A stretch of 35,420 nucleotides of DNA from Gammaproteobacteria bacterium. Its GTDB lineage: Bacteria > Pseudomonadota > Gammaproteobacteria > Chromatiales > Chromatiaceae. The notes under the pieces were generated by a model, which saw only the letters and a list, made by a program, of their open reading frames with translations, ran no database searches and had not been told where the DNA came from. A program made the position numbers and the translations under genes. The DNA is taken from positions 1 through 35,420 of the forward strand of contig JAHJDE010000200.1 in the NCBI GenBank assembly GCA_018812525.1, given 5' to 3'. Below, in pieces: positions 3,663 through 35,281 of this stretch. The first letter of the stretch is position 1. Every line of letters starts with the position of its first letter.

Positions 3663-3932
3663 TCAGGCCGATTGCAGCCAGTTGGCCGCGTCGTCCAAAG
3701 CCCAGTGGGCCTTGAATTCGGTGTCATACCGATTCAAGGGGTACTCCATACGGCATCCCTTGGCGCGGCTCTCCACGCTCAGGATCTCCCCCTCGGCACC
3801 CATCAAAAGACGGGCGTCGATGGTGTCGTTCATGGCGACGACAGAGAGGATCGAGGACAGGTACTCCCGTCCTAATCCCCTCGCCTGGGCGCTTTGCTCC
3901 TGTTCCCAGGCGGCAAACAGGTTTTTTTTCAT
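3663..3932 (-). CDS. Hypothetical protein, 89 aa
   Basis: Unknown family; largely helical by composition (MKKNLFAAWEQEQSAQ...). The start at 3932 is chosen because it follows GGAGAGACGCC and a three-arm leader; a longer reading to 3968 would run through that leader. It is the first gene of the operon led by module A. Confidence 0.8.
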   Translation of the reverse strand: MKKNLFAAWEQEQSAQARGLGREYLSSILSVVAMNDTIDARLLMGAEGEILSVESRAKGCRMEYPLNRYDTEFKAHWALDDAANWLQSA

Positions 3933-3990
3933 GGCGTCTCTCCGGTTGTGGGGAAACACCGATCCCATGCCGGGAGTGTTTCCCGGATGG
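3933..3990 (-). promoter_or_regulatory. Three-arm translational leader
   Basis: Arm 1 GGGAAACAC (3984-3976) pairs perfectly with arm 2 GTGTTTCCC (3959-3951). Arm 2 can also pair with the ribosome-site strand GGAGAGAC at 7 of 8 positions, counting G-U. Compared with the 75-aa gene leader, both arms of the stem have changed together (AGACAC to AAACAC, GTGTCT to GTGTTT). Confidence 0.7.
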
Positions 3991-3995
3991 GCAAA

Positions 3996-4167
3996 GGTTT
4001 CTGCTGGGTGTTTTACCTGGCCAACTACCAGGGGCCTTTCGGCGGGAAACCGGATATCTCTGAGCAGCCAACCAAGACGGGCTGTTCAGAGCGATCAGGG
4101 ATAAGGATAAGGGTTTATTTCCGGCGCGGATCGCCGAATAACCGGGTTTAAGCCGGTTTTGCGGGGC
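3996..4167 (-). promoter_or_regulatory. Structured leader module A
   Basis: In transcription order: IR1 palindrome (AACCGG-N7-CCGGTT), IR2 (TCCG-N3-CGGA), a TTATCC box, then three hairpins. P1 is CTCTGAACAGCC/GGCTGCTCAGAG (4091-4080 with 4069-4058, one mismatch). P2 is GCC-GAAA-GGC (4043-4034). P3 is CCTGG-TAGTTGG-CCAGG (4032-4016). The tail is CAGCAGAAACC. It precedes the operon 3932-249. Confidence 0.8.
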
Positions 4168-4179
4168 AAGGAAGGAACA

Positions 4180-4197
4180 CCTCCCCTTTCGGGGAGG
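4180..4197 (-). terminator. Terminator-like hairpin after the DUF1874 gene
   Basis: CCTCCCC-GAAA-GGGGAGG is a perfect 7-bp stem with a GNRA loop, followed on the minus strand by TGTTCC and not a strong T run. A sister hairpin with a GCAA loop sits before module B. Confidence 0.5.
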
Positions 4198-4264
4198 TAT
4201 CCAGGTTCAGTGATGGGCCGTCAGCAAGCGGGCGAGCTGGCGGGTTCCTTGTCGATCACTCTGC

Positions 4265-4615
4265 CTACGCGGCAGAGACGGTGACATAGAGCCACCGGAT
4301 CGCGGCCCCCTCGGGAAGGGCCTTGCAGCCCTCCGGGAGGCGAGGGCCGGTGTACTGGCCGACGACTGCGTCGTCGCCGGCCTTGAGCGTGATGGTTTCG
4401 CGCCGGCACTCGACCGGCACGCCAAGCACCGATTCAAACACCGCAGCCGTGTCGGGATGCCCGACTGCGGAGCGGATCATTTCCGCCTCTCCCACTTCCT
4501 CGGCGGCAAGCAGGAGGTTGATCCGCGCCGTTTCGGCGGAAATTTCGGTGAATTTCACCGAACATGGAAACTCCGCAACCATGTTTGCGGAAAATGCGTT
4601 GAGCAGAATGCTCAT
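4265..4615 (-). CDS. DUF1874 protein, AcrIII-1/Crn2-like candidate ring nuclease
   Basis: The 116 residues match the DUF1874 family pattern throughout: LLNAFSANM at 4-12, SAVGHPDTAAVF at 49-60, GQYTGPRLPEG at 86-96, and a closing beta strand. In the family, SIRV1 gp29 (AcrIII-1) is an anti-CRISPR ring nuclease that degrades cyclic tetra-adenylate and so switches off type III CRISPR ancillary nucleases. Its catalytic histidine sits in the GH motif, kept here as H53. An arginine in the position of the family's ligand-binding residues is also kept (R92). The start at 4615 follows AAGAAGGAGCACCA. Whether this copy cleaves cA4, or acts as a host-type ring nuclease, is inference. It has its own module (B). 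Confidence 0.85.
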   Translation of the reverse strand: MSILLNAFSANMVAEFPCSVKFTEISAETARINLLLAAEEVGEAEMIRSAVGHPDTAAVFESVLGVPVECRRETITLKAGDDAVVGQYTGPRLPEGCKALPEGAAIRWLYVTVSAA

Positions 4616-4650
4616 TGGTGCTCCTTCTTTGTTGAATGCCGCATGAAAGC
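4616..4650 (-). promoter_or_regulatory. Hairpin leader of the DUF1874 gene
   Basis: GCCGC-TTTCAT-GCGGC forms just upstream of the AAGAAGGAG ribosome site, directly after the tail of module B. Confidence 0.5.
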
Positions 4651-4826
4651 GGCGGGGTTTGTGCTGGATGGATTGCTGGCCAGCTACCAGTGCCACTGGT
4701 GGCAAAAAACCATGTGTCTTTGAATAGCCGGCTCGGGAGCAGGTTGTTCAAAGACCAAGGGGAATAGGATAGTGCCAAAAATCCGCAACGGATCGCCGAA
4801 TAACCGGGTTTAAGCCGGTTTTGCTG
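4651..4826 (-). promoter_or_regulatory. Structured leader module B
   Basis: Same order as module A. IR1 is AACCGG/CCGGTT and IR2 is ATCCG-TTG-CGGAT followed by five T. The box is TATCCTAT. P1 is TCTTTGAACAACC/GGCTATTCAAAGA (4754-4742 with 4729-4717), where both strands differ from module A yet still pair. P2 is GCCA-CCAG-TGGC. P3 is CTGG-TAGCTGG-CCAG. The tail is CAGCACAAACC. It precedes the DUF1874 gene. Confidence 0.82.
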
Positions 4827-4845
4827 AGCAAAGAAGGAAAGAACA

Positions 4846-4863
4846 CCTCCCCTTGCGGGGAGG
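4846..4863 (-). terminator. Terminator-like hairpin after the methylase-helicase
   Basis: Perfect 7-bp CCTCCCC/GGGGAGG stem with a GCAA loop on the minus strand, 59 bp after the stop of the giant gene. The stem is identical to that at 4180-4197, with a different GNRA loop. Confidence 0.5.
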
Positions 4864-4921
4864 GTTCGGTTGTGGTTGATGGCGCAGCGCCCCAGAGGGA
4901 CGCGACGCCATCCTGTTTCAA

Positions 4922-7900
4922 TCAAGCGGCTTCGGATTCCGTTTCCTCTGCCGCCGCCATTTCGCCTTTGGTCAGATCAAGGGCACCCTCGATCTCCCGC
5001 TGACGTTGCCGCAGCCAGACCAGCCGATCAGCCTTTTCGAAGGGCTTGGCGGTTTCAGTCTGGATATCGGCCAGTCGCTTTTCCGTTCGTTCCAGGAGGG
5101 CGCGTTCCTCTTTGAGCGCGTCCCCCATTCGCCCCAGGGCGTTTTCGAGCACCTTGACCATCCCTGTCGCGGTCTCTGCTCGTCCGGCCTCATACTCGGC
5201 ATCGCCCAGGAGCAGCAGTTGCTTGCCGCCATTTTTGAGAATGGAAGCGCGTACGCCAACCTGAAGGCCGGCGATCCGTCCGATTACTCGTTCCTCGCTC
5301 GTGCGCACGCCTTGCAGCGCTCGCATGATGGCCTTGCCGGCCTCGGCGCGGTCCCGATAGCGAATACCCTCCACCTCCATGGCGAAGCGGGGTCCGGAGA
5401 CATCGCCGCGAGCGGCAATGTCGGCCTCGATGCCGGCGATTCGCCCCGTCATCCGCTGTAGGCGGCTGGGTAAAGTCGCCAGTTCCTGCCGGTTGCGCCA
5501 TTGCTGCTGGTCCCATTGGGACTTGAGCAGCGACAGCTTGGCCAGCTCGGTATCGACGCCCGCCTTTTCCAGCACCAGGGGATTACCCGACGCCAGTGCC
5601 TTCACCTCGGCATAGGACAGCGCGGCCAGTTCAACATCCTCGGCGCTGCGCATCCCGCTATCACCCTGCATGACCTGGGCGATGAAGCGCGCCTTGGTCT
5701 CAAGCGTCTGCCAAATGTACGAATCGAACGACCCCTCGGTGACATACCGGTAGATCCGCACTTCCTCGTTCAGGTTGCCCTGGCGAATGATGCGGCCCTC
5801 CCGCTGCTCCACGTCGGACGGACGCCAGGGGGCGTCCAGGTGATGTAGGGCCACCAGTCGGGTCTGGACGTTGGTCCCGACCCCCATTTTCCCCGTGCTG
5901 CCCAGCAGGATGCGGATACGCCCCTCACGCACGGACTTGAACAGCTCCTCCTTGGCGGAATCGCTGTCGTAGTCATGGATAAAGGCGATCTCCGCCGCCG
6001 GTACGCCCATCTCGACCAGCTTGTGACGCAGGTCTTGATAAACACTGAACCGTCCGTCGCTGTGCGGCGTGCTCTGGTCGCAGAAGACGATCTGCGCGCC
6101 GCGCACCTTGGTTGTTTCCTGCCAAACCCCTTGCACCTTGCGCGCGCAGAGATTGACCTTGGAGGTCTCCAGGTCCGGGTGGGAGGCATCACCCCGCACC
6201 AGCCGCATGTCCAGGGCGGCCTTGCGTCCGTCATTGGTCACCGCCAGCATGTTGTCTTCGCTCGGAGTCACCTCGCCGTTTCGGATCGCCTCCGCCCGTT
6301 CCACCAGGGATTGGACGTAGAGCTTCAGATCCGGCGTGTTGGGCGCCGTGACCGTTTCCTTGTGGGCCTTCGGCACCGGCAGGTTCAGCATCTCCGCCGT
6401 GCGGATATCCGCCACCTCGCCGAACATGGACATCAGTTCAGGGAGATTGACGAACTTGGCAAAGCGGGTCTGCATGCGGTAGCCGCGACCATCCGGGGCC
6501 AGTTCCAATGCCGTCACCGACTCGCCGAAGTTGCCGGCCCAGGTGTCGAACATGCCCACCTGTTGGTTCTCCAGCGTCCGGGGCTGCAAGTACCGCTGCA
6601 TGACCCACAACTCGGCCATGCTGTTGGATACCGGCGTCCCTGTGGCAAAGGTCACCCCCGCCCGTCCGCCGTGCTTCTCCATGACGTAGCGCGTTTTGAT
6701 GAACATATCGAAGGCCCGTTCCGAGTTGCTGTTGGGCAGCCCGGCGACCCGCGTCATCTTAGTGAATTTCCATAGGTTCTTGAAAAGATGAGCTTCGTCT
6801 ATAAACAGCCAGTCGATGCCCAGCTCCTCGAAGGTCAGCAGATCGTCCTTCTTGGTCTTACCGGTCAGCTTGGCCAGCTTGGCCTCCCAGGACTTCTTCG
6901 CCCGCGCCAGCTCCTTGACGATGCGATTGCCGCGATCCTGCTTGGCGGCAAGGATCGCATCACTGATGGTCGCAATCTCTTCCTTGATGTACTCCTTCAT
7001 GTGCGCGTCGCTCATCTTGATCCGCTCGAAACTCGCGTGGGTCATGAGCACCCCGTCCCAGTCGCCGGTGGCGATCCGGGAGAGCAACAACCGGCGCCGG
7101 TCGCCTTGCAGATCCTCCTTGCCGGCCATCAGGATGTTGGCACCCGGATAGGCCCGCAGAAACTCGGCGGCAAACTGGGCCAGCATGTGATTCGGGACCA
7201 CATAGAGGGGTTTGCTTGCCTTGCCGAGCCGACGGAGTTCCATTCCGGCACAGATCATAGTGAGGGTCTTGCCTGCTCCGACTGTGTGGGCCAGAAGCGT
7301 ATTGACCCCACTCGCTACGGTGCGCCAGGCGGCGTCCCGTTGATGATCGTGCAGCCGGTACACCTGGGAGAACCCCGGCAATACCAGATGCTGTCCATCG
7401 TAGCGACGTTGCACGACCGCATTGAACTGGTCGTTGTAAAGCCGGGCCAGCCGTTGCGCCCGAGCATCGTCCGACCAGAGCCATTCAACAAACCCTTCCT
7501 TGAGCTGCTGCTGTTTTTCACGCGCCGCGATGGTCTCCTTCTGGTTGACCAAACGCTTGTCCCGATCCAGTGGGCTGGGGTCATAGACCGTCGGCACCAT
7601 CTGGTTCAGCGCCAACTCGAACAGTGTCACCGCGTTGACGCGCCCCGTCCCGTAGGTCTGGGTTGCCGCCACGGAGTACCTTGTCCGCCAGTCGGGTTCC
7701 AGGCTCCAGGCACCGGCCAATGCGCCGAACTCGACCCGGTTGGAATCACCTTCCAGGGTCTCGTTCAGAAATGCCTCGTAGTCGCTGGCCGGTATCCAGG
7801 TGGACCCGATACGCGCCCCGATCTCGTGCGGAGCCAAGTCGGCGGGAATGACCGCCTCCAAGGCCTGCGCGTTGCCGTGATACCGCTGGCCTGCCAGTCG

Positions 7901-9829
7901 GGCGACCGTCAGCTTGTCGCGGACGTTACCGGAGAGGTAGGCATCCGCCGTTTCCCAGCGGCCCGTTGCCGGGTCCAGGAACACCGAGCCATCCCCTTCG
8001 AGTTCCTGCATCACTTCCTCGCCCGGTTTCCCGAGCAATTTCCCGATCCGGTTCTCGACGACGCGGCCCTTTTCGACGATGCAGGCGAGCAATGCCTCCT
8101 GCGCCGTTTCGCACCGCTCAATGCGACGGAAGGCCCCCGCCGTGCGCCGGTGGAAGATATCCGCCTTCTCGGCGGTTTGGGTTGCTTCATCCCACCGCTC
8201 CAATGACAGCAGCAGCGGCAGATCCGGGTCAGCCCGAAAGGCTTGCCGGTTGGCCTTGGCATGGAGGAAGCCCTGCTGTCCCTGGAAGTTGTCGTAGGCC
8301 AAGCTCAGTGACAGGCGGTAGGTCTCCAGGATGCGGTCATCTTCGGTCTCGGCCTGGGCCTTGACCAGCTTCCGTGCGGCATCGCGGATCTCCACCATCC
8401 CGGCGATACGATCCAGGGTCTTCTGGGGCGCCTTGTAGAGCACCGCTTCAGATCCGTGGATCTCGTATACCTTGCCATCGACCAGCCGGAAGCCCGGACG
8501 GTGCTGTTCTGTCAGCGACAGCTTGATTACCGTGCCGGAATCCAGATCCTCCTGTATCGAGGCGTAGATCCCCTCGGGCAACAGGCCGATCTTATCCGTC
8601 AGGGCCGCGTCGAGGTCGCCCTCGAAGATGCAGCCGGTGGACTTGCCGTAGCCGTTATCGCACAGCTTGAGCTTGCCGATGACCCACTGGGGGTTGGCGG
8701 CAAAATACTGGTTCGTGTAGATCTTGGGCCTTTCCCAATAATTCTGCCCGCCGCCATAGACCGGTGACGAGGTGTCCAGCTCCTTTACGTCCATCCACTC
8801 CCTTTTGGCCGACTTGCCGGAGAGGGGTTTTTGCAGGATCAGGATGTCGGTCGTTACCGACGTGTTGGCGATCTTCTTGAACGCCGTGTTTGGCAGCCGG
8901 ATAGCCGCCACCAGATCCGCCTGCGATCCCAGGTACTGCCGTACCCGGTCCTCGTTCTTGTCCATCGTCCCTGACGAGGTGATGAACACCACCAGCCCGC
9001 CCGGTCGGACCACTTCCAGCGCCTTGGCGAAAAAGTAGTCATGGATCAGGAAGCCCTGGTAAGGCACATTCCGAAGCTCCGGCACCTGGTAGTTGCCGAA
9101 TGGGACGTTCGAAATCGCCAGATCAAAATACCCTGGCGGCAAGGAGCGCCGCTCGAAGCCGTCCTGAACCGCCTGCACATCGAAGTCGCCGTAGAGCTTC
9201 TTCAGAATGCGCGAACTGATCTGGTCGAGTTCGATGGCCGTGATCTGGCTGTTGCGGGCGATTGCCTCGGGCATGGCGCCCAGGAAATAGCCCGTGCCGG
9301 CGGAGGGCTCCAGGATGCGGCCCCCCTTGAATCCCAGCCGTTCCACCATCGCCCACATGGCCTCGATGATCTCCAACGAGGTGTAATGGGCATTGGGCGT
9401 GCTGGCGTGGGCGGATTCCCATTCATCCCCGTCCAGCAAGGTCTGTAGCCGCTCGGCGCGGGCAGACCAAGACGGATCTCTCTGCTCCCGGTTGAACGCC
9501 TGGGGCAGGCCGCCCCATCCGGTGTAGCGATTGAGGATGGTCCGTTCGTCCGCGTTGGGCTGACGCTTCTCGGCCCACAGCTTGCGCAGCAGGTCGATGG
9601 CGGCGACATTGGCCTCGAACTTGGTCACATCCCCCGACATGTCGGTGAAGGTGGCCGCTTCGAGACGGGGCCAGATGGGCTTGGCGGGTTTGTCCGTTTT
9701 AGCCCGCGCCAGGAAGGGGATGATCTCTGCCTGGTGCTGCCCCGAACAACCCAGCACCTCAAGGGGGTTCTCATCGGGACCGAAGCCGGGCAGCCACATA
9801 ATGGCTTCGGCGAGCGATGTTCTTTTCAT
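4922..9829 (-). CDS. DarB-like N6-adenine methylase / SF2 helicase, 1635 aa
   Basis: A giant fusion. The N terminus carries the YTGWGG signature (102-107) of the N12-class adenine methylase family, SAM motif I EPSAGTGYF (174-182) and a motif IV variant SNVPFGNY (240-247; canonical is NPPF/Y). The middle and C terminus are a superfamily 2 helicase: GAGKT near 850, DEAH near 1011, ATGTPVSNS further on, and QREGRIIRQGN near 1343. A coiled-coil-like tail follows. Known relatives include phage P1 DarB, which protects incoming DNA from type I restriction, and large plasmid or ICE methylase-helicases. Here it probably modifies or protects the element's DNA, but host restriction could also be its role. 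It stands alone behind module I, with a ribosome site in a hairpin. Confidence 0.93.
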   Translation of the reverse strand: MKRTSLAEAIMWLPGFGPDENPLEVLGCSGQHQAEIIPFLARAKTDKPAKPIWPRLEAATFTDMSGDVTKFEANVAAIDLLRKLWAEKRQPNADERTILNRYTGWGGLPQAFNREQRDPSWSARAERLQTLLDGDEWESAHASTPNAHYTSLEIIEAMWAMVERLGFKGGRILEPSAGTGYFLGAMPEAIARNSQITAIELDQISSRILKKLYGDFDVQAVQDGFERRSLPPGYFDLAISNVPFGNYQVPELRNVPYQGFLIHDYFFAKALEVVRPGGLVVFITSSGTMDKNEDRVRQYLGSQADLVAAIRLPNTAFKKIANTSVTTDILILQKPLSGKSAKREWMDVKELDTSSPVYGGGQNYWERPKIYTNQYFAANPQWVIGKLKLCDNGYGKSTGCIFEGDLDAALTDKIGLLPEGIYASIQEDLDSGTVIKLSLTEQHRPGFRLVDGKVYEIHGSEAVLYKAPQKTLDRIAGMVEIRDAARKLVKAQAETEDDRILETYRLSLSLAYDNFQGQQGFLHAKANRQAFRADPDLPLLLSLERWDEATQTAEKADIFHRRTAGAFRRIERCETAQEALLACIVEKGRVVENRIGKLLGKPGEEVMQELEGDGSVFLDPATGRWETADAYLSGNVRDKLTVARLAGQRYHGNAQALEAVIPADLAPHEIGARIGSTWIPASDYEAFLNETLEGDSNRVEFGALAGAWSLEPDWRTRYSVAATQTYGTGRVNAVTLFELALNQMVPTVYDPSPLDRDKRLVNQKETIAAREKQQQLKEGFVEWLWSDDARAQRLARLYNDQFNAVVQRRYDGQHLVLPGFSQVYRLHDHQRDAAWRTVASGVNTLLAHTVGAGKTLTMICAGMELRRLGKASKPLYVVPNHMLAQFAAEFLRAYPGANILMAGKEDLQGDRRRLLLSRIATGDWDGVLMTHASFERIKMSDAHMKEYIKEEIATISDAILAAKQDRGNRIVKELARAKKSWEAKLAKLTGKTKKDDLLTFEELGIDWLFIDEAHLFKNLWKFTKMTRVAGLPNSNSERAFDMFIKTRYVMEKHGGRAGVTFATGTPVSNSMAELWVMQRYLQPRTLENQQVGMFDTWAGNFGESVTALELAPDGRGYRMQTRFAKFVNLPELMSMFGEVADIRTAEMLNLPVPKAHKETVTAPNTPDLKLYVQSLVERAEAIRNGEVTPSEDNMLAVTNDGRKAALDMRLVRGDASHPDLETSKVNLCARKVQGVWQETTKVRGAQIVFCDQSTPHSDGRFSVYQDLRHKLVEMGVPAAEIAFIHDYDSDSAKEELFKSVREGRIRILLGSTGKMGVGTNVQTRLVALHHLDAPWRPSDVEQREGRIIRQGNLNEEVRIYRYVTEGSFDSYIWQTLETKARFIAQVMQGDSGMRSAEDVELAALSYAEVKALASGNPLVLEKAGVDTELAKLSLLKSQWDQQQWRNRQELATLPSRLQRMTGRIAGIEADIAARGDVSGPRFAMEVEGIRYRDRAEAGKAIMRALQGVRTSEERVIGRIAGLQVGVRASILKNGGKQLLLLGDAEYEAGRAETATGMVKVLENALGRMGDALKEERALLERTEKRLADIQTETAKPFEKADRLVWLRQRQREIEGALDLTKGEMAAAEETESEAA

Positions 9830-15470: not shown

Positions 15471-15520
15471 TGTGATTGATGCCGCAGGATTGCGGCGATA
15501 TTTGGTGCCGCATAAAAAAG

Positions 15521-15696
15521 CGGCGGGGTTTGTGCTGGGCGGATTGCTGGCCAGCTACCAGTGCCACGAGGGCAAAAAACCATGTGTTTTTGAACAGCCG
15601 ACTCGGGAGCGGGTTGTTCAAAAACATCTGGAGATAGGATGGGGCAAAAAATCCGCAACGGATCGCGGAATAACCGGGTTTTAGGCGGTTTTGCGG
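15521..15696 (-). promoter_or_regulatory. Structured leader module D
   Basis: IR1, IR2 (ATCCG-TTG-CGGAT then six T) and the box CATCCTAT. P1 is GTTTTTGAACAACC/GGCTGTTCAAAAAC (15625-15612 with 15599-15586), 13 of 14 Watson-Crick plus one wobble. P2 is GCC-CTCGT-GGC and P3 is CTGG-TAGCTGG-CCAG. The tail is CAGCACAAACC. It is the closest relative of module B. Confidence 0.82.
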
Positions 15697-15706
15697 GATT
15701 AATAAC

Positions 15707-16200: not shown

Positions 16201-18285
16201 TTAAGCCGCCGCCAGCATCCTCTCCGCCAGGGCATTGAGAATGGCCGGAGCCAAGTCATTGGCGCTTTTGATCACGCCGGACTTGCGACAGATCTTCCGT
16301 ACTGCCTCGGTGCCGATGCCGACCCCGTAGAGTTCGATGCCGGAGCGCTCGATCAAGCCGGCCACCTGTTGGGCTGCTGGCATGTTATCGGGCGATCCAT
16401 CTGTCACCAGCATGAGGATCTTTCGTTCCTCCCTACGGGCTACCAACCTGTTCCCGGCGATCCAAAGCGCTTCCGCAGTGGGTGTACCGCCGCTTGCTGC
16501 AATGGCGCCGATCCTTCCCCTCGCCCGTGCGAGCGGGGCATCGAAGGTCTTGATGGCGCCGATCTGGCTGCCCGCAAAGGGGATCACCTCGAACGGCACG
16601 CCCATGACGGCGCACACCTCGGCCATGGCGATGACCGCCTGGGTGGCCAGGATGATGTCGTCCTTGAGCACGAGCCCAGAACCCTTTATCGCCCAGCCCA
16701 TTGATCCTGAGCAGTCCAGCACCAGGGATACGGCGGGCTTTGGGGCCTGGGTCACCACCTTGTGGCGATAGACCCGCGTCTCACCCACCAGGGCCTGATG
16801 CAGTCGGCGCCCATCCAGGCGTCCTTCCTCGGCGACGACCGTGCGACTGCGGCGTTTCGTTTGAAACTCCACCACCAGCCTCCGTTGCAATTGCGAGATC
16901 TGTCCAGACACGGCGCCCTTGAGGGCACTGTACCGGGGCAGATTCTCGCCCTGGGGCGGAGGGGTGATGGTCTGGGGGTTGAAAACGAAGTTGCCCTTCG
17001 CCGCCGCCTCCGCTGCCATGGCCTGTGCCGCGCCTTTGCGGTCGATGGCCGGACCCTGGTCGATGTTGGCATCTTCCAGGATCTGCCTGGCGGAACCGCC
17101 TCGACCAGCGCCGCCGCCTTGACTGGAGTCATCGGCTTTCTGATCGGACCCGTCTTGATCGCCATCCGAATCCTGGCCAGTGCCATCTTGGCCACCGCTG
17201 GAGCCCTGGTCGGACTCTTCCTGATCGCCATCAGAGCCCTGACCGGGCTCGTCTTGGTCACCGTCAGAGCCCTGGCCTGAGTCACCTTGGCCGCCATTGG
17301 AGTCCTGGTCGGACTTTTCCTGGTCGCCGTCAGAGCCCTGGTCAGTGCCATCTTGGCCACCGCTGGAGCCCTGGTCGGACTCTTCCTGATCGCCATCAGA
17401 GCCCTGATCGGGCTCGTCTTGGTCACCGTCAGAGCCCTGGCCTGAGTCACCTTGGCCGCCATTGGAGTCCTGGTCGGACTTTTCCTGGTCGCCGTCAGAG
17501 CCCTGACCGGGCTCGTCTTGGTCACCGTCAGAGCCCTGGTCAGTGCCATCTTGGCCACCGCTGGAGCCCTGGCCGGACCCGCCCTTGCCTTCCTGCGGAT
17601 CAGAGGGCTTTTTTTCCTGCGGCTTGGGCTCAGGTGGCTTCTCTTGCTCATCCTGGATGTCCTTGATGAGCTGAACGACCTGCCCGGAGAGCTTCAGGGT
17701 CTCTGCCGTGGAATTGGCGGAGTAAAGTTTCGTGGAAAGCAGGGCTTCCAGCCGCGCCACGCCTTTCTCCTCAATGTGCTTTACCAGCTCCGCGCGGGAG
17801 GTGGCAAGGATCGGATCGACGCCCTGAAGCAGGACGTTTTTCCGCCCCCAGGCGTCGCAGAAGACTTGCAATGCGTCTGCGGGTCCCTTCTCGCCCGTGC
17901 GGCATTGACCCCTGGCAACGGCGATCTCCGCCGATTCTGCCAAGGTTTGCTGGCAGCCCAGGTAGTCATCCCCGAGCTTGCGCTCGATGAAGGTGTCCTC
18001 CAGGGCATTCCAGATACCGAACTGGAGGTCCGATATCGTGGGCCGTTTTTTCCCTACCATATCGAAATCCGAGTGGCGGATGTGTCCGCACTCGTGGTCG
18101 ATGTCCCCGACCACCATTTTCACAGTGGATTCATCGGCATCGACCGGCAGCGGGCTCGACCAGATGGTCGTTCCCTCGGTTCTGGGCGGTCCCTGCCATA
18201 CGATCTTGACTCCCTTCTGCCCGGCGATGGCCGAGCAGATCGCCGGAAGCGTGTTCCGGAGAGTGGTGTTTCGGCTCGCGTTCAT
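16201..18285 (-). CDS. CobT-like VWA domain protein, 694 aa
   Basis: The N-terminal part has a HECGH metal-site motif (64-68). A long low-complexity Gly/Ser/Asp/Gln linker (about 228-385) follows. The C-terminal von Willebrand A domain shows the MIDAS signature DCSGSM near 521. Despite the usual cobaltochelatase CobT label, such genes on ICEs and plasmids pair with a MoxR-type AAA ATPase, here the CobS-like protein at 22200-23225. They are better seen as a MoxR-VWA remodelling pair. The start at 18285 (MNASRN) follows AAAGGAGAGACC; a reading from 18534 would run through the leader. DUF3150 lies immediately upstream in the operon. Confidence 0.9.
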   Translation of the reverse strand: MNASRNTTLRNTLPAICSAIAGQKGVKIVWQGPPRTEGTTIWSSPLPVDADESTVKMVVGDIDHECGHIRHSDFDMVGKKRPTISDLQFGIWNALEDTFIERKLGDDYLGCQQTLAESAEIAVARGQCRTGEKGPADALQVFCDAWGRKNVLLQGVDPILATSRAELVKHIEEKGVARLEALLSTKLYSANSTAETLKLSGQVVQLIKDIQDEQEKPPEPKPQEKKPSDPQEGKGGSGQGSSGGQDGTDQGSDGDQDEPGQGSDGDQEKSDQDSNGGQGDSGQGSDGDQDEPDQGSDGDQEESDQGSSGGQDGTDQGSDGDQEKSDQDSNGGQGDSGQGSDGDQDEPGQGSDGDQEESDQGSSGGQDGTGQDSDGDQDGSDQKADDSSQGGGAGRGGSARQILEDANIDQGPAIDRKGAAQAMAAEAAAKGNFVFNPQTITPPPQGENLPRYSALKGAVSGQISQLQRRLVVEFQTKRRSRTVVAEEGRLDGRRLHQALVGETRVYRHKVVTQAPKPAVSLVLDCSGSMGWAIKGSGLVLKDDIILATQAVIAMAEVCAVMGVPFEVIPFAGSQIGAIKTFDAPLARARGRIGAIAASGGTPTAEALWIAGNRLVARREERKILMLVTDGSPDNMPAAQQVAGLIERSGIELYGVGIGTEAVRKICRKSGVIKSANDLAPAILNALAERMLAAA
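17120..17600 (-). repeat. Tandem repeat coding the acidic linker of the CobT-like protein
   Basis: Units of roughly 30-60 bp recur, encoding variations on GSDGDQDEPGQ, GSSGGQDGTDQ and DSNGGQGDSGQ. Larger blocks are repeated almost exactly (around 17160-17340 and 17340-17570), which suggests recent expansion by slippage or unequal recombination. It may also be an assembly-length uncertainty. Confidence 0.85.
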
Positions 18286-19965: not shown

Positions 19966-19995
19966 CTTGTTTGATTCCGCAGGTTAAGGCGGATG

Positions 19996-20166
19996 GGTTT
20001 CTGCTGGGTGTTTTACCTGGTCAACTGCCAGGGCCTTGCGGCGGGAAAATCGGGAAACCTCTGAGCAACCGGCCATGGCGGGCTGTTCGGAGATTTCTGG
20101 GGATAGGATAGGGGTTTGAATCCGGTGCGGATCGCGGAATAACCGGGTTTTAGGCGGTTTTGCGGG
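19996..20166 (-). promoter_or_regulatory. Structured leader module E
   Basis: IR1, IR2 (ATCCG-CAC-CGGAT), box CTATCCTATCC. P1 is CTCCGAACAGCC/GGTTGCTCAGAG with wobble pairs. P2 is GCC-GCAA-GGC and P3 is CCTGG-CAGTTGA-CCAGG. The tail is CAGCAGAAACC. It leads the glycine-zipper/DUF3150/cobT unit. Confidence 0.8.
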
Positions 20167-20176
20167 CTGGATGATG

Positions 20177-24467: not shown

Positions 24468-24522
24468 GGTGCTTCTCCGGTTAAGAGGAAACACCGACCC
24501 CTTCCGAGCGTGTTTCCCGGAT
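24468..24522 (-). promoter_or_regulatory. Three-arm translational leader
   Basis: Arm 1 GGGAAACAC (24518-24510) pairs with arm 2 GTGTTTCCTC (24494-24485). Arm 2 also pairs with the ribosome strand GGAGAAGCAC at 9 of 10 positions counting G-U. Confidence 0.7.
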
Positions 24523-24528
24523 GGGTAA

Positions 24529-24693
24529 GGTTGGTGCTGTCTTTACCGGTTCAGCTACCGGGCCTTTCGGCGAAAAAACCGGATATCTCTGAGCAGCCAG
24601 CCAAGACGGGCTGTTCGGAGGGATCAGGAATAAGGATATGGGATTATTTCCGGCGCGGATCGCGGAATAACCGGGTTTAAGCCGGTTTTGCGG
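24529..24693 (-). promoter_or_regulatory. Structured leader module F
   Basis: IR1, IR2, TATCC-type box. P1 is CTCCGAACAGCC/GGCTGCTCAGAG. P2 is GCC-GAAA-GGC. P3 is CCGG-TAGCTGAA-CCGG, where the CTGG/CCAG stem of other modules has become CCGG/CCGG on both sides. The tail is shortened. Confidence 0.8.
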
Positions 24694-24712
24694 AGCAAGG
24701 AAGGAAGGAGGG

Positions 24713-26996: not shown

Positions 26997-27851
26997 TCAG
27001 TGGCTGGAGGCAGTCGCCAGGCAGGGCTTGATGCCAGTGGCGAGTTTGTGCAGCTCGTCATGGGGCAGAGTGAACCCTGCCGCATGTTCGTGGCCGCCAC
27101 CGCCAAAGCGGCCGGCGATCACGGAGACATCCATGCCGCCGTCATTCGATGAGCGGAGGCTGAAATTGCGGCCTGATGGGGTATCGCAATACACCGCAGC
27201 AAACCGTTCGCCACACGCCAGGATCGCGCCTGCGTCTGATGCCCACCCCAAGGGGGCATTGACCATCGGGACATCGTGCCCCGCGATCACGCCACGGGTG
27301 GCGCAGCGGCGCAGGTGGCCCTCAATCTCCTTCTTGCGGCTCCTTGCAAGGCATGCGCCCTCCATGCGAAGAGAGGCGACGGGAGTTGTCAGCAGCCTGT
27401 CCCATTCCCCGAACTCCATGGGGTATGAGTACAGGGCGGCCACGATCTCCCGCGTTCCCTCAAGCTCGAACCGCCACAGGTCCTGATCCTGGATGTGGCA
27501 GAACAACTCGGGCTGCTCATCGCCTGGATAGAAGTAATCCCAGGCGAGCATTACGCCCGACCGCTCCATATCGAACACGGCCTCGACGTTGGGCGGCAGG
27601 CCCATCAGTTCCGCCTGAGCGGACTTGTGGTGGTCGAGGATCAGGATCGACCGGGCCTTTCCTGCCAGCTCCAGCAGGACGTGCCGGGGATAGGAAAAAT
27701 CGACCAGGATCAGATCCTCGCCTTCGCCAATGGCCGGAGGCGCTTCCTGGTAGACACCGGGAAAGAATCCGACCTCCGGCCCCAGTGCTTTTTTGACGAC
27801 CCACGCGGCGCCGAAGCCATCCGCGCAGTCGCCGTGATAAACACAGAGCAT
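26997..27851 (-). CDS. DHH-family phosphoesterase, 284 aa
   Basis: Motif I is HGDCADGFGAAW (6-17), motif II is VDFSYP (50-55), motif III is DHH (73-75). A C-terminal DHHA1-type motif GGGGHEHAAGF also appears. These are the metal and substrate residues of NrnA/RecJ-like phosphoesterases, so it probably hydrolyses short oligonucleotides or a cyclic or linear nucleotide signal. If the DUF1874 protein produces linear A2-P or similar, this enzyme could act downstream; that is inference only. The start at 27851 follows GGGAGAAGTAC. Confidence 0.9.
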   Translation of the reverse strand: MLCVYHGDCADGFGAAWVVKKALGPEVGFFPGVYQEAPPAIGEGEDLILVDFSYPRHVLLELAGKARSILILDHHKSAQAELMGLPPNVEAVFDMERSGVMLAWDYFYPGDEQPELFCHIQDQDLWRFELEGTREIVAALYSYPMEFGEWDRLLTTPVASLRMEGACLARSRKKEIEGHLRRCATRGVIAGHDVPMVNAPLGWASDAGAILACGERFAAVYCDTPSGRNFSLRSSNDGGMDVSVIAGRFGGGGHEHAAGFTLPHDELHKLATGIKPCLATASSH

Positions 27852-28118: not shown

Positions 28119-28140
28119 GGCTTCGCCTGTGGTAGTGTTT

Positions 28141-28308
28141 AGGCTGTCGTTGCCGGTCAGCTACCGGTGCTCCGGGGAGCAGGAAAATCGGCGGAAGCCT
28201 CAGAGCAGCCAACCGCAGCGGGCTGTTCAAAGGCATCCAGGGAGATAGGATAGGGACTTAAATCCGGAACGGATCGTGGAATAACCGGCTTAAAAGCGGT
28301 TATTCGGG
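28141..28308 (-). promoter_or_regulatory. Structured leader module G
   Basis: IR1 in its full form (GAATAACCG/CGGTTATTC), IR2 (ATCCG-TTC-CGGAT), box CTATCCTATC. P1 is CCTTTGAACAGCC/GGCTGCTCTGAGG. P2 is GCTC-CCCG-GAGC. P3 is CCGG-TAGCTGA-CCGG. It lacks the CAGCA(A/C)AAAC tail. It leads the unit 28118-24800. Confidence 0.8.
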
Positions 28309-28458
28309 GCAGGAATGAAAAAGCCACGGGACCGAGAGTATCGTTGGTGCTCTTCAGGGTTTGTTAGCCAAGTCCGCAGGCCGGGGCACTCGCGGTCGCC
28401 ACCATGAGGGTACTGTTTTTTTGCGCCGCCAGAGCCAGGATAAGGCCCCTTGACGCGG
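28309..28458. other. Non-coding spacer downstream of the Fic gene
   Basis: About 150 bp with no convincing gene. It contains a partial IR1-like GCGGTTATTCGCG at 28446-28470 and an AAGGCCCCTTGAC segment resembling the sequence upstream of module H (34127-34137). This suggests a decayed module edge. Confidence 0.4.
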
Positions 28459-29591: not shown

Positions 29592-30902
29592 TCAAGCGGC
29601 CCTGGGGTGTTCATAGGCATAGCCATCTCCTCGTTGCAGCAGGGTAAAGCGATGATGGGGCGCGGTGATCTTGATCCGTTTGTCGTTGGTCCGGGTCTGG
29701 ATATCGAAGGCTCCCCGTTCCCTCACGGCAACCTTGCCGACATAGGCTCCCCGGTATTTCCCGGATGGCTGCACCAGTCGCACCAAGTCCCCGGTCTGGA
29801 AGCCCCGCACGCGCTTGACGCCCTTGGGCTTGGTCCTTGGCGTACCGTATTTATCCATCAGGCACATTTGCCGCGAACCATGTCCGATGGCCCGGATGGA
29901 GAGGGGCCGCAGTTTCTCGGGGATCATTGGGGCAGCGCCGCTTTCGCCCGTACAGGCCGCATCGATCCAGTGAGCTTTTGGGTAGTTCTGCCGCGTCCGG
30001 TTGAACTTGGTGCGCCCACCGGAGCCGGTCTCCAGCGGAAGTCCGGTTTGTTGCAGGGCCTCGAACAACGCCCGGCGGGTTGAGTTGACGGCGGCGGCAT
30101 CCTTCAGGGGCGCCTTGGCATTCGCCTTGATCGATTTCAAACGATCCGGGTCGTCTTTCAGGAATTCCTCCACCGGACGAGCCTCTTTCTTCTCGTTGCA
30201 GCGCTGGCAAGCCAGGGTCAGGTTGGATACTCGATCCGTGCCGCCCCGCGCCCTGGGTACGATGTGGTCGATCTGGAGGGGGGCGTTCTCCTTGTCGCAG
30301 TAAGCGCATTTCCGTCCCCATTTCTCCAACAGGTATTCCCTGACCTCGTAGCCGAACAGCTCGCCCTGTTGGTATTCGACGCCTTCGACCTCGGGATTCT
30401 GGAGCTTCTGGGTGTCGAAGCGGACCAGTTCCAAACTGAGAGCCGAGACCGGCGCCCAGCGGCGGAGTCGGTTGACCCAGCTCGTCACGGTTAGCACGCG
30501 GTGATAGAGACTGGGGGCCAGCCACCCCTTGGCTCTTCTCTGAATATTCGATCGCCTGGGGCGGAAGCGGCAATGAAGATAGCGGCGCCTCTTCCGGACG
30601 GCCTTGCGCGCAAGTAACGACGCCTTGATCGCCAGCCCCCGGTGATGCAGCTCGGCGGCCCAGATCACTTTGTCGCCCCGCTTTCCTGTGATCACCATCG
30701 CAATGCCGGTGGTCTTGCTGCCGGGATCGAGCTTGAGGCGTAGCGGCTGCGCATCGCCGCCCTCGCGTTCGAGCAAGATGATCGTGAACGGCTCACGGCG
30801 GAACACTGCCGCTTTCCCGTCCGACAGCAAGCGCCTGGCCCTGGCCGCCTGGCAGGGCATCAAGGGCTGCTGGTTTTTGTCCAAAACAAAGACTCGTTGC
30901 AT
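29592..30902 (-). CDS. iscB: IscB RNA-guided nuclease (RuvC + HNH), 436 aa
   Basis: The domain order is that of IscB. PLMP is at 13-16 and RuvC-I is LDPGSKTTGIA with D59. The Arg-rich bridge helix spans about 95-125. RuvC-II carries E158 (LSLELVRFD). The HNH domain has CAYC (199-202), IDH (211-213) and CQRC (232-235). RuvC-III is HWIDAACTG with H311 and D314. All catalytic positions are present, so it should be active. IscB uses an omega RNA coded just upstream, seen here at 30921-31200. No TnpA transposase is present, so the element is either mobilised in trans or fixed cargo. Confidence 0.95.
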   Translation of the reverse strand: MQRVFVLDKNQQPLMPCQAARARRLLSDGKAAVFRREPFTIILLEREGGDAQPLRLKLDPGSKTTGIAMVITGKRGDKVIWAAELHHRGLAIKASLLARKAVRKRRRYLHCRFRPRRSNIQRRAKGWLAPSLYHRVLTVTSWVNRLRRWAPVSALSLELVRFDTQKLQNPEVEGVEYQQGELFGYEVREYLLEKWGRKCAYCDKENAPLQIDHIVPRARGGTDRVSNLTLACQRCNEKKEARPVEEFLKDDPDRLKSIKANAKAPLKDAAAVNSTRRALFEALQQTGLPLETGSGGRTKFNRTRQNYPKAHWIDAACTGESGAAPMIPEKLRPLSIRAIGHGSRQMCLMDKYGTPRTKPKGVKRVRGFQTGDLVRLVQPSGKYRGAYVGKVAVRERGAFDIQTRTNDKRIKITAPHHRFTLLQRGDGYAYEHPRAA

Positions 30903-33880: not shown

Positions 33881-33922
33881 AATCCGGATTCGGACTTGCG
33901 GCGGGTTTGGTGCCGTTGACAC

Positions 33923-34101
33923 GGCGGGGTTTCTGCTGTTTTTACTGGCCAGCGACCAGTGCTCCGAGGAGCAAGAAAACCCATCAGAAGTCTCTGAACG
34001 GCAAGCAGGCGCGTGCTGTTCGGAGATCACTGGGGCAATAGGATAGGGAGTTAAATCCGGTGCGGATCGCAGAATAACCGGCTTAAAAGCGGTTATTCGG
34101 G
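33923..34101 (-). promoter_or_regulatory. Structured leader module H
   Basis: IR1 in full form (GAATAACCG/CGGTTATTC), IR2 (ATCCG-CAC-CGGAT), box CTATCCTATT. P1 is TCTCCGAACAGC/GCCGTTCAGAGA with mismatches. P2 is GCTC-CTCG-GAGC. P3 is ACTGG-TCGCTGG-CCAGT. The tail is CAGCAGAAACC. It leads ssb. Confidence 0.8.
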
Positions 34102-34122
34102 AGATGAAATGAAGATGAAATG

Positions 34123-34277: not shown

Positions 34278-34679
34278 TTAGAACTTCCAGGGCATCTTGC
34301 CCTTCCGTCCGCCCCTCTCGCGAGGGGTCTCCGGGGCCTCCGGGGCCTCCGGGTCCGCCAGGGGGTCCTGGGCGTCGAACGCCCACGACCACCCGTCTCC
34401 TTTAGACATTTCCTTGTCGTCTTCCCATCCATGGGAAATTACGCTGTATCCCTCCGGCGCGTATGACACGCGGCGGAGGACGGTAATGTGGGTGTCGCGC
34501 CCCCCCCACGAACTTTCCACCTCAATGGTGGAAAAGAGGTCGGCCCCGGAAAGGGCCGACAACACATCGATGGAGCCCGTGTAACGGGCTCCATCGATGT
34601 CCATGGTCAGGTCGGGGAGATCTTTCCCCCCGACCCAACCGATCAGGGGCATTACAGCCCCCATGGTGATTGCGTTCAT
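34278..34679 (-). CDS. Hypothetical protein, 133 aa
   Basis: Begins MNAITMGAVMPLIGWVGGK. Trp/Asp-rich beta-type middle, a Pro/Glu stretch (DPEAPEAPETPRE) and a basic end (RGGRKGKMPWKF). Unknown. The start at 34679 has GAGGAGGAATA after a GGGCC-AAAA-GGCCC hairpin, the same as the 113-aa gene. Confidence 0.78.
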   Translation of the reverse strand: MNAITMGAVMPLIGWVGGKDLPDLTMDIDGARYTGSIDVLSALSGADLFSTIEVESSWGGRDTHITVLRRVSYAPEGYSVISHGWEDDKEMSKGDGWSWAFDAQDPLADPEAPEAPETPRERGGRKGKMPWKF

Positions 34680-34753
34680 TATTCCTCCTCGGGCCTTTTG
34701 GCCCAAAAATGGAAAAAAGCACGCTACACCCCGCCGGGTGAAACGTACCCGGT
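34671..34753 (-). repeat. 83-bp duplicated leader, copy 1
   Basis: Identical by eye to 35122-35204. It holds the start codon region (MNA), GAGGAGGAATA, the GGGCC-AAAA-GGCCC hairpin, a T-rich stretch and an ACCGGG/CCCGGC arm pair. Confidence 0.85.
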
Positions 34754-34788
34754 GGGTTCCCCGGCGGATGCCGGGGGTATAAAAAAGT
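34754..34788 (-). other. Hairpin between the two leader-duplicated genes
   Basis: CCCCGGC-ATCC-GCCGGGG lies after the stop of the 113-aa gene, preceded on the minus strand by a T-rich stretch. It may end that transcript or protect it. Confidence 0.45.
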
Positions 34789-35130
34789 TCATTGCCCGAG
34801 GCAATGCCCGAACAGGGCCTTGCCCGCTTGGGCAAGGGTTTGGTTAGGCTTGTCGTACCTCAGGTACTCCCACAGTTTTTCCGCGCGCTCCGGCGCGGAA
34901 AAACCTCCCATGGTGCGAGCGACATACGCGACCGTCATGGCCGCGTCGTCGTCGATGTTAGGAAAACCGCTGGACCGGGGGGCCGGACCGTAACCCCCGA
35001 CCAACGGGATCCATCCCAGTGCGCGGCCATAGGCCGCGCCGTTGAACGTTTGGCCCGAAGGCCCTGTCCCTTTGTGGTGCGCGCGGAGCGCACCAAGAAA
35101 ATCTTCGCTCTCCCTCAGTGTTGCGTTCAT
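34789..35130 (-). CDS. Hypothetical protein, 113 aa
   Basis: Begins MNATLRESEDFLGALRAHHKG, with a Gly/Pro-rich middle and a helical end. Unknown. It shares leader and first codons with the 133-aa gene but not the rest, so only the expression signal was copied. Confidence 0.78.
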   Translation of the reverse strand: MNATLRESEDFLGALRAHHKGTGPSGQTFNGAAYGRALGWIPLVGGYGPAPRSSGFPNIDDDAAMTVAYVARTMGGFSAPERAEKLWEYLRYDKPNQTLAQAGKALFGHCLGQ

Positions 35131-35204
35131 TATTCCTCCTCGGGCCTTTTGGCCCAAAAATGGAAAAAAGCACGCTACACCCCGCCGGGTGAAACGTACC
35201 CGGT
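35122..35204 (-). repeat. 83-bp duplicated leader, copy 2
   Basis: Second copy of 34671-34753. The flanks diverge at once: a CCGGCA/TGCCGG hairpin follows here, a CCCCGGC/GCCGGGG hairpin in the other copy. Confidence 0.85.
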
Positions 35205-35281
35205 TGGGTTTCCGGCAAAAATGCCGGAATGTTCTTGTGTCCATCACATGCGCGCCAGGCCCCGAGGGGAGCGCGAGCATG
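35205..35281. other. Non-coding region leading into the junction
   Basis: No gene. Contains a CCGGCA-TTTT-TGCCGG hairpin (around 35213-35228) and GC-rich inverted segments. With 1-248 it forms the longest gene-free stretch of the circle (about 360 bp) and is the best place to look for a replication origin, although I see no iterons or DnaA boxes. Confidence 0.45.

What the first reader, a model, noticed from the sequence alone, without database searches (positions are those of the whole stretch)
4265..4615. DUF1874 (AcrIII-1/Crn2-like) candidate ring nuclease on a bacterial circle
The 116-aa protein matches the DUF1874 pattern including the GH motif (H53). AcrIII-1 of archaeal viruses degrades cA4 to defeat type III CRISPR. 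Here it has its own structured module and lies next to a DarB-like anti-restriction candidate, suggesting a counter-defence pair.
Basis: partly seen in the sequence, partly recalled or inferred. Interest (0 to 1): 0.68.

Follow-up and report, generated by a model that had tools for sequence, protein, structure and literature searches.

The report
Plasmid-borne ring nuclease, likely anti-CRISPR
A bacterial plasmid carries a gene for a small enzyme of the kind that phages use to destroy the alarm molecule of type III CRISPR immunity, in an assembly that itself has that immunity and its own off-switch enzymes of the same family.

Summary
Window 4265-4615, minus strand, encodes a 116-aa DUF1874 protein (PF08960 above its cut-off). 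A confident model (pLDDT 95) matches the AcrIII-1:cA4 crystal structure 6scf (Z 13.5). H53 aligns with catalytic H47 of SIRV1 gp29. It is 36% identical to AcrIII-1 of phage THSA-485A, which blocks cA4-dependent immunity in E. coli. Its nearest relatives sit on phage contigs and a conjugative Nitrosomonas plasmid. The window is a 35,281-bp circle.

The same assembly holds Cmr-type (III-B) loci with GGDD Cas10, a Card1-type nuclease and two DUF1874 (Crn2) proteins, only 26-27% identical to the plasmid copy. None of 69 spacers examined matches the plasmid.

The neighbouring 1635-aa gene is DarB-like. The "structured module" is one of seven copies of a 186-nt intergenic element, found nine more times on partly syntenic contigs of a congener without the acr gene. 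Best reading: an AcrIII-1 gained as accessory cargo by a plasmid, behind one of its repeated modules. A new member of a known family; the modules are the less explained part.

The parts
4265..4615 (-). acrIII-1-like gene, 116 aa, DUF1874; putative catalytic H53; conserved N6, S9, R72, R92, E95
4644..4831 (-). structured intergenic module directly upstream of the acr gene (28 nt before the ATG); 85% identical to the module at 15515-15701
4168..4197 (-). terminator-like hairpin followed by a T-rich stretch, downstream of the acr gene; near-copy at 4834-4863 between the DarB-like gene and the acr module
   Evidence: read by eye (the terminator scan was not run); repeat family D18
4922..9829 (-). 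DarB-like protein with SNF2/helicase matches and weak methyltransferase matches, 1635 aa
3984..4169 (-). module copy ahead of an 89-aa and a 212-aa ORF
15515..15701 (-). module copy ahead of a 73-aa ORF
19984..20170 (-). module copy ahead of a 158-aa ORF
24517..24698 (-). module copy ahead of a 76-aa ORF
28124..28312 (-). module copy ahead of a 62-aa ORF and the DHH phosphoesterase gene
33916..34105 (-). module copy ahead of the SSB gene

Best explanation
The gene encodes a ring nuclease of the AcrIII-1/Crn2 (DUF1874) family, carried by a 35.3-kb plasmid as an anti-CRISPR. Inferred mechanism: a homodimer binds cyclic tetra-adenylate (cA4), which a type III Cas10 makes when the crRNP detects plasmid RNA. 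H53 (equivalent of SIRV1 gp29 H47) assists cleavage of the ring into linear di-adenylate. The cA4-activated effectors of the host (Card1/Can2-type nuclease, CARF/SAVED membrane proteins) are then not switched on, or are switched off early, so plasmid and cell survive targeting. Shown here: family, fold, catalytic-site residues, plasmid location, nearest relatives on phages and plasmids, and a host assembly with type III loci and cA4-type effectors. Inferred: cA4 cleavage, benefit to the plasmid, dimer formation, and expression from the upstream module.
For: PF08960 and PHROG hits. Model pLDDT 95 with VIA Z 13.9 to 2j85, 13.5 to 6scf (AcrIII-1 with cA4), 13.3 to 2x4i, 12.9 to Csx1-Crn2 8y7f. 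H53 aligned with H47, and R72/R92/E95 with R66/R85/E88 of SIRV1 gp29 (alignments, numbering counted from them). Among 114 aligned sequences H53 is kept in 114, R92 in 113, R72 in 112, E95 in 108. THSA-485A AcrIII-1, 36% identical over 111 columns, almost completely prevented cA4/Csx1 plasmid immunity in E. coli (PMC7371418, passages). Nearest viral relatives L070-L072 carry between them portal, terminase, head and tail genes; N. stercoris conjugative plasmid protein 60% identical. Tree of 82 rows: P0002 + that plasmid protein + L070-L072, SH-aLRT 82; the two host Crn2 proteins form a separate pair. Host: Cmr2/Cas10 matches, GGDD in those of C5 and C89, Card1_endonuc and CARF/SAVED proteins beside host Crn2. 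No cas family among the hits of the window proteins scanned, other than the Cas9 likeness of IscB.
Against: No spacer of four arrays (69 spacers, two genomes) matches the plasmid; best 11 mismatches against 10 for shuffled spacers, so targeting of this plasmid is not shown. The 114 sequences were partly collected with a pattern that contains GH and include identical copies, so the counts are partly circular and not independent. The P0002-type protein is rare: of 194 family genomes only the own one has it in full; 8 more have weak partial matches, so there is no population signal. The host already has two DUF1874 enzymes, so the gain from a third is not obvious. Whether contig and host loci share one cell depends on the assembly, which may be a metagenome bin.
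Confidence: 0.85

Rival explanations
1. It is a Crn2: a host-type off-switch that tempers type III signalling for the good of the cell, carried on a plasmid.
For: Same fold and active site as Crn2; the host genome has two Crn2 genes.
Against: No type III gene was found among the scanned window proteins; the plasmid protein is 26-27% identical to the host Crn2 pair and groups with phage and plasmid proteins.
Confidence: 0.07
2. It is a cA4 sponge or a dead ring nuclease: it binds but does not cleave.
For: Sponging exists among members of another ring-nuclease family, Csx15 (PMC13148439, abstract and passages).
Against: Catalytic histidine and the conserved arginines and glutamate are all kept.
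Confidence: 0.04
3. Its real substrate is another cyclic nucleotide and it guards against a different signalling system.
For: Substrate not tested; Crn4 shows that ring nucleases can be broad (PMC12830947, passages).
Against: The DUF1874 enzymes described in the passages read degrade cA4; the host has cA4-type effectors by family match.
Confidence: 0.04

Closest known systems
AcrIII-1 of Thermoanaerobacterium phage THSA-485A
   Same: DUF1874; 36% identity over 111 columns; shares NAFS, GH and RLPEG motifs
   Different: on a phage; the window protein has about 12 extra residues before GH
AcrIII-1 of SIRV1 (gp29; PDB 2x4i, 6scf)
   Same: fold (Z 13.3-13.5); catalytic His and Arg/Glu positions
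   Different: archaeal virus; 24-27% identity in the structural alignment
Hypothetical protein Nstercoris_02317 on Nitrosomonas stercoris plasmid 1 (AP019756)
   Same: 60% identity; also plasmid-borne
   Different: conjugative MOBP/MPF_T plasmid by PLSDB typing; no module match in the 20-kb stretch around it; backbones not compared gene by gene
Host Crn2 proteins (contigs C202, C89)
   Same: PF08960 family, same assembly
   Different: 26-27% identity; sit beside CARF/SAVED or Cmr genes
Crn2 domain of Marinitoga Csx1-Crn2 (8y7f/8y7g)
   Same: fold, Z 12.9 and 12.4
   Different: fused to a Csx1 ribonuclease in a type III-B locus

Membership tests
DUF1874 ring nucleases (AcrIII-1/Crn2) | PF08960 score above curated cut-off | tested here: met
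   34.8 bits against 26
DUF1874 ring nucleases (AcrIII-1/Crn2) | fold of STIV B116/SIRV1 gp29 | tested here: met
   VIA Z 13.9 (2j85), 13.5 (6scf), 13.3 (2x4i), rmsd 2.2-2.5 over 101-109 residues
DUF1874 ring nucleases (AcrIII-1/Crn2) | catalytic histidine of the GH motif | tested here: met
   H53 aligned with H47 of 2x4i; 6scf has alanine at this place; H47A is the inactive variant in PMC7213978 (passages)
DUF1874 ring nucleases (AcrIII-1/Crn2) | homodimer that binds cA4 | not tested
   only the monomer was modelled
DUF1874 ring nucleases (AcrIII-1/Crn2) | metal-independent cA4 cleavage | not testable with these tools
   needs an assay
AcrIII-1 (mobile-element branch) | encoded by a virus or plasmid, outside a type III locus | tested here: met
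   35,281-bp circle; no type III cas hit among the scanned window proteins
AcrIII-1 (mobile-element branch) | groups with mobile-element homologues | tested here: met
   group of five with three phage contigs and one plasmid, SH-aLRT 82, not starred; 110 columns, 42 of 74 inner branches open
AcrIII-1 (mobile-element branch) | inhibits type III immunity in vivo | not testable with these tools
   shown only for the THSA-485A relative (PMC7371418, passages)
Csx16 ring nucleases | match to a Csx16 model | tested here: inconclusive
   PADLOC model PDLC01147 'Csx16' rings at 9.2e-8, but it also rings at 1.2e-48 and 6e-42 for the two host proteins that are PF08960 members; no NCBIfam hit
DarB-like antirestriction proteins (neighbour gene) | full-length likeness to phage proteins annotated so | tested here: met
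   3 of the 15 listed phage records bear this name, 95-97% of the query, 38-39% identity; others are annotated differently or not at all
Frpo/ssi single-strand promoters (for the module) | hairpin that pairs recognisable -35 and -10 elements on the transferred strand | tested here: inconclusive
   hairpins supported by paired changes; strand signal contradictory; no convincing -35/-10 pair seen by eye; no comparison with known Frpo sequences

The most novel reading that the evidence does not exclude
The seven 186-nt modules are a previously undescribed structured control element with which this plasmid lineage switches on establishment and counter-defence genes (SSB, DHH phosphoesterase, AcrIII-1) together, perhaps from the single strand on entry like Frpo, and new anti-defence genes are recruited by duplicating a module in front of them.
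Probability: 0.15. Interest if true: 0.7.

Novelty: new member of a known kind. Interest (0 to 1): 0.42.

Why it matters
The same enzyme family is found on both sides in one assembly: two host Crn2 off-switches and a plasmid copy whose nearest relatives are on phages and a plasmid. That makes it testable whether the mobile-element version is faster or tighter than the host version against the same effectors. It also ties a likely anti-CRISPR gene to a repeated plasmid element, which gives a handle for finding further counter-defence genes in this lineage by the element rather than by homology.

Tried and rejected
Looked for targeting of the plasmid by spacers: 17 spacer-like stretches of one array, and 69 spacers of four arrays (two in the own genome, two in the congener). 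Only contig stretches around type III loci and the module contigs were read, not whole genomes; none matched better than shuffled spacers.

Looked for the module in Rfam: nothing at gathering score in the window; in five module loci three hits, all far under their families' cut-offs. Looked for it outside the genus: 2 of 188 family genomes and 2 of 210 order genomes (largely the same set; stricter filters that lose weak matches), both times only the own genome and the one congener; no exact core-pattern match in viral contigs; no match in PLSDB for one copy; none in the Sulfuricystis pSTJ2 stretch or near the N. stercoris gene.

Tried to decide which strand of the module folds. Single copies show no steady preference; the acr copy folded as DNA has z -2.7 on the gene-sense and -3.9 on the other strand. 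G-T to A-C cells are 27 to 14 with the covariance-model pairs, which favours the gene-sense strand. RNAalifold on a free alignment of 14 copies (two of 16 distinct copies dropped as too divergent) gives the other strand a lower energy, -27.1 against -9.6, and that structure has 42 A-C against 12 G-T cells, the sense one 9 against 21. Each count leans to the strand on which its structure was predicted; left open.

Rejected: that H53 conservation alone proves activity (the collection pattern contains GH). Rejected: calling the acr and DarB-like genes one operon (hairpins and a module lie between them). The tree used 82 of the 114 collected sequences; L069 and L118-L148 were dropped to keep it small.

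Full report
Observation. The ORF at 4265-4615 (minus strand) is intact: ATG, 116 residues, stop, with a ribosome-binding-like stretch just upstream. The contig ends share 139 identical bases, so the window is a circle of 35,281 bp. GC is 60.5%, against 60-63% for the four host stretches measured.

What it is. Pfam places it in PF08960 (STIV_B116-like, DUF1874) at E 1.9e-8, above the curated cut-off; PHROG 5063 at 1.3e-14. A profile of 31 relatives hits PDB sequences 2j6b, 2x4i, 2j85 and 6scf at E 7e-16 to 2e-12. The AlphaFold2 model (31-row alignment of window and fetched-locus proteins) has mean pLDDT 95.0. The structural aligner gives Z 13.9 to 2j85, 13.7 to 2j6b, 13.5 to 6scf (AcrIII-1 with cA4), 13.3 to 2x4i and 12.9 to Csx1-Crn2 8y7f; the one other entry listed is at 2.8. 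In the alignments, H53 falls on H47 of SIRV1 gp29, whose H47A variant binds cA4 but is called catalytically inactive in PMC7213978 (passages). S9, R72, R92 and E95 fall on S11, R66, R85 and E88; that these residues contact cA4 is recalled from the AcrIII-1 structure paper, which I did not read. In 114 aligned sequences (the window, 107 loci, three from annotated plasmid and phage records, one earlier viral locus and the two host proteins, some of them identical copies) H53 is kept in 114, R92 in 113, R72 in 112, S9 and E95 in 108 each. The collection used two patterns, one with GH in it, so the first number is partly by design.

Relatives. tblastn finds 5 of 72,556 plasmid records and 2 of 50,697 phage records (one phage, two records) at E 1e-5 or better. 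The best is a hypothetical protein of a conjugative Nitrosomonas stercoris plasmid, 60% identical. The viral collection gives 99 relatives, of which 80 were kept, and the genome collection 28. Of the three nearest viral contigs, L070 carries portal, terminase and Rz-like spanin genes, L072 terminase, RecE-like and Erf-like genes, and L071 head and tail genes (ten ORFs scanned). In a quick tree of 82 rows (of the 114) the window protein groups with these three and the Nitrosomonas protein (SH-aLRT 82); the two host DUF1874 proteins form their own pair (99), far away. The tree has 110 columns and 42 of 74 inner branches open. [quoted passage not shown] coli plasmid assay (PMC7371418, passages).

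Host. The assembly G000 (3.5 Mb, 215 contigs, completeness 100, contamination 1.08) has three PF08960 genes: the plasmid one, one on C202 and one on C89. The C202 gene sits between a Card1-type CARF-PD-DExK nuclease and a protein that PADLOC calls CARF with 2 TMs (Pfam SAVED, below its cut-off); the C89 gene follows a CARF-TM protein and cmr genes and has a reverse-transcriptase ORF on its other side. Cmr2/Cas10 matches lie on C89, C5 and, below the cut-off, at the end of C45; those of C5 and C89 keep GGDD. C5 also has an RT-Cas1 fusion and a 17-repeat array. RAMP genes lie on C5, C45, C89 and C189. So the signal that AcrIII-1 destroys is probably made in this host. No spacer matches the plasmid: 0 of 69 spacers from four arrays of this genome and a congener.

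Neighbourhood. The 1635-aa gene at 4922-9829 has SNF2/helicase matches above the Pfam cut-offs and methyltransferase matches below them. It finds 126 phage records; the 15 listed cover 94-98% of it at 38-43% identity, three annotated DarB-like antirestriction. Between it and the acr gene lie a terminator-like hairpin and a 186-nt module; another hairpin and module follow the acr gene, so it looks monocistronic (read by eye; the terminator scan was not run). The rest of the plasmid has a Toprim primase-like protein, SSB, RecT, YqaJ exonuclease, a CobS/CobT-like pair, Fic and IscB, and among 41 further ORFs scanned together DHH phosphoesterase, RadC, FGE-sulfatase, a TacA-like antitoxin and a GNAT acetyltransferase (except for the first ORF, the DHH protein, these scans do not say which ORF matched). 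No relaxase or type IV secretion family was among the hits.

Modules. Seven copies lie upstream of minus-strand ORFs: acr, a 73-aa ORF, a 158-aa ORF, an 89/212-aa pair, a 76-aa ORF, a 62-aa ORF plus DHH, and SSB. A congener (G053) has nine matches on three contigs. 29 of the 47 window ORFs compared have tblastn matches on the four congener stretches taken, and five of the seven modules stand before related genes there: SSB, DHH, the 73-aa, the 158-aa and the 212-aa ORF. The acr gene has no counterpart on those stretches; the one PF08960 match in G053 is on C5, the contig that also carries RAMP genes. A full DarB-like gene is not found in G053, which has only two short matches of 86-100 residues, though a 114-base stretch matching the DarB 3' end at 73.5% lies beside the module at L167:8729-8914. 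Whether the congener contigs are a plasmid was not shown. The acr module is 85% identical to the 15515-15701 module, its closest copy among the 14 aligned, which suggests a duplication. Paired changes support the hairpins: on the 16 distinct copies, 15 of 32 pairs have changes on both sides, 0 of 500 shuffles as high, and slid controls reach 9 at most; this alignment was fitted to the model and so leans towards it. Which strand folds is undecided.

Comparison with print. PMC12409355 (passages) reports AcrIII-1 in 36 of 28,114 phages and Crn2 in 7 type III loci. [quoted passage not shown] PMC11541004 (passages) describes Frpo single-strand promoters before SSB and in anti-defence islands of plasmid leading regions; the arrangement here resembles that, but no promoter elements were shown.

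Verdict. A real AcrIII-1-type gene on a plasmid, new member of a known family, in an unusually telling setting.

Noticed in passing
window 3984-4169, 4644-4831, 15515-15701, 19984-20170, 24517-24698, 28124-28312, 33916-34105 (minus); G053 copies in L166-L169: Seven copies of a 186-nt structured intergenic module, nine more in a congener; not in Rfam at cut-off; found in no other genus among the family and order genomes searched.
   Followed up: partly
L011 (G000:C202) 3712-5670; L012 (G000:C89) 916-2147: Host Crn2 proteins beside a Card1-type nuclease, a CARF/SAVED-like 2-TM protein and a CARF-TM protein: cA4-type effectors in the plasmid's own assembly.
   Followed up: yes
window 26997-27851: DHH phosphoesterase (PHROG 4771, E 7e-89) behind a module, 65% identical to one on a congener contig; could finish off linear oligo-adenylates, untested.
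   Followed up: no
L167:8994-9109 (G053:C20): A stretch matching 114 bases of the 3' end of the DarB-like gene, beside a module, in a congener where no full copy of that gene was found.
   Followed up: partly
window 29592-30902: IscB (E 5.5e-132), with a 79% identical relative on the congener contig C32.
   Followed up: no
window 17130-17591: Array of 33-base repeats inside the CobT-like ORF.
   Followed up: no
window 34670-34765 and 35121-35216: Two 96-base copies, 96% identical, 451 bases apart start to start.
   Followed up: no
L013:12793-14838 (G000:C5): Reverse transcriptase-Cas1 fusion next to type III genes and a 17-repeat array.
   Followed up: no
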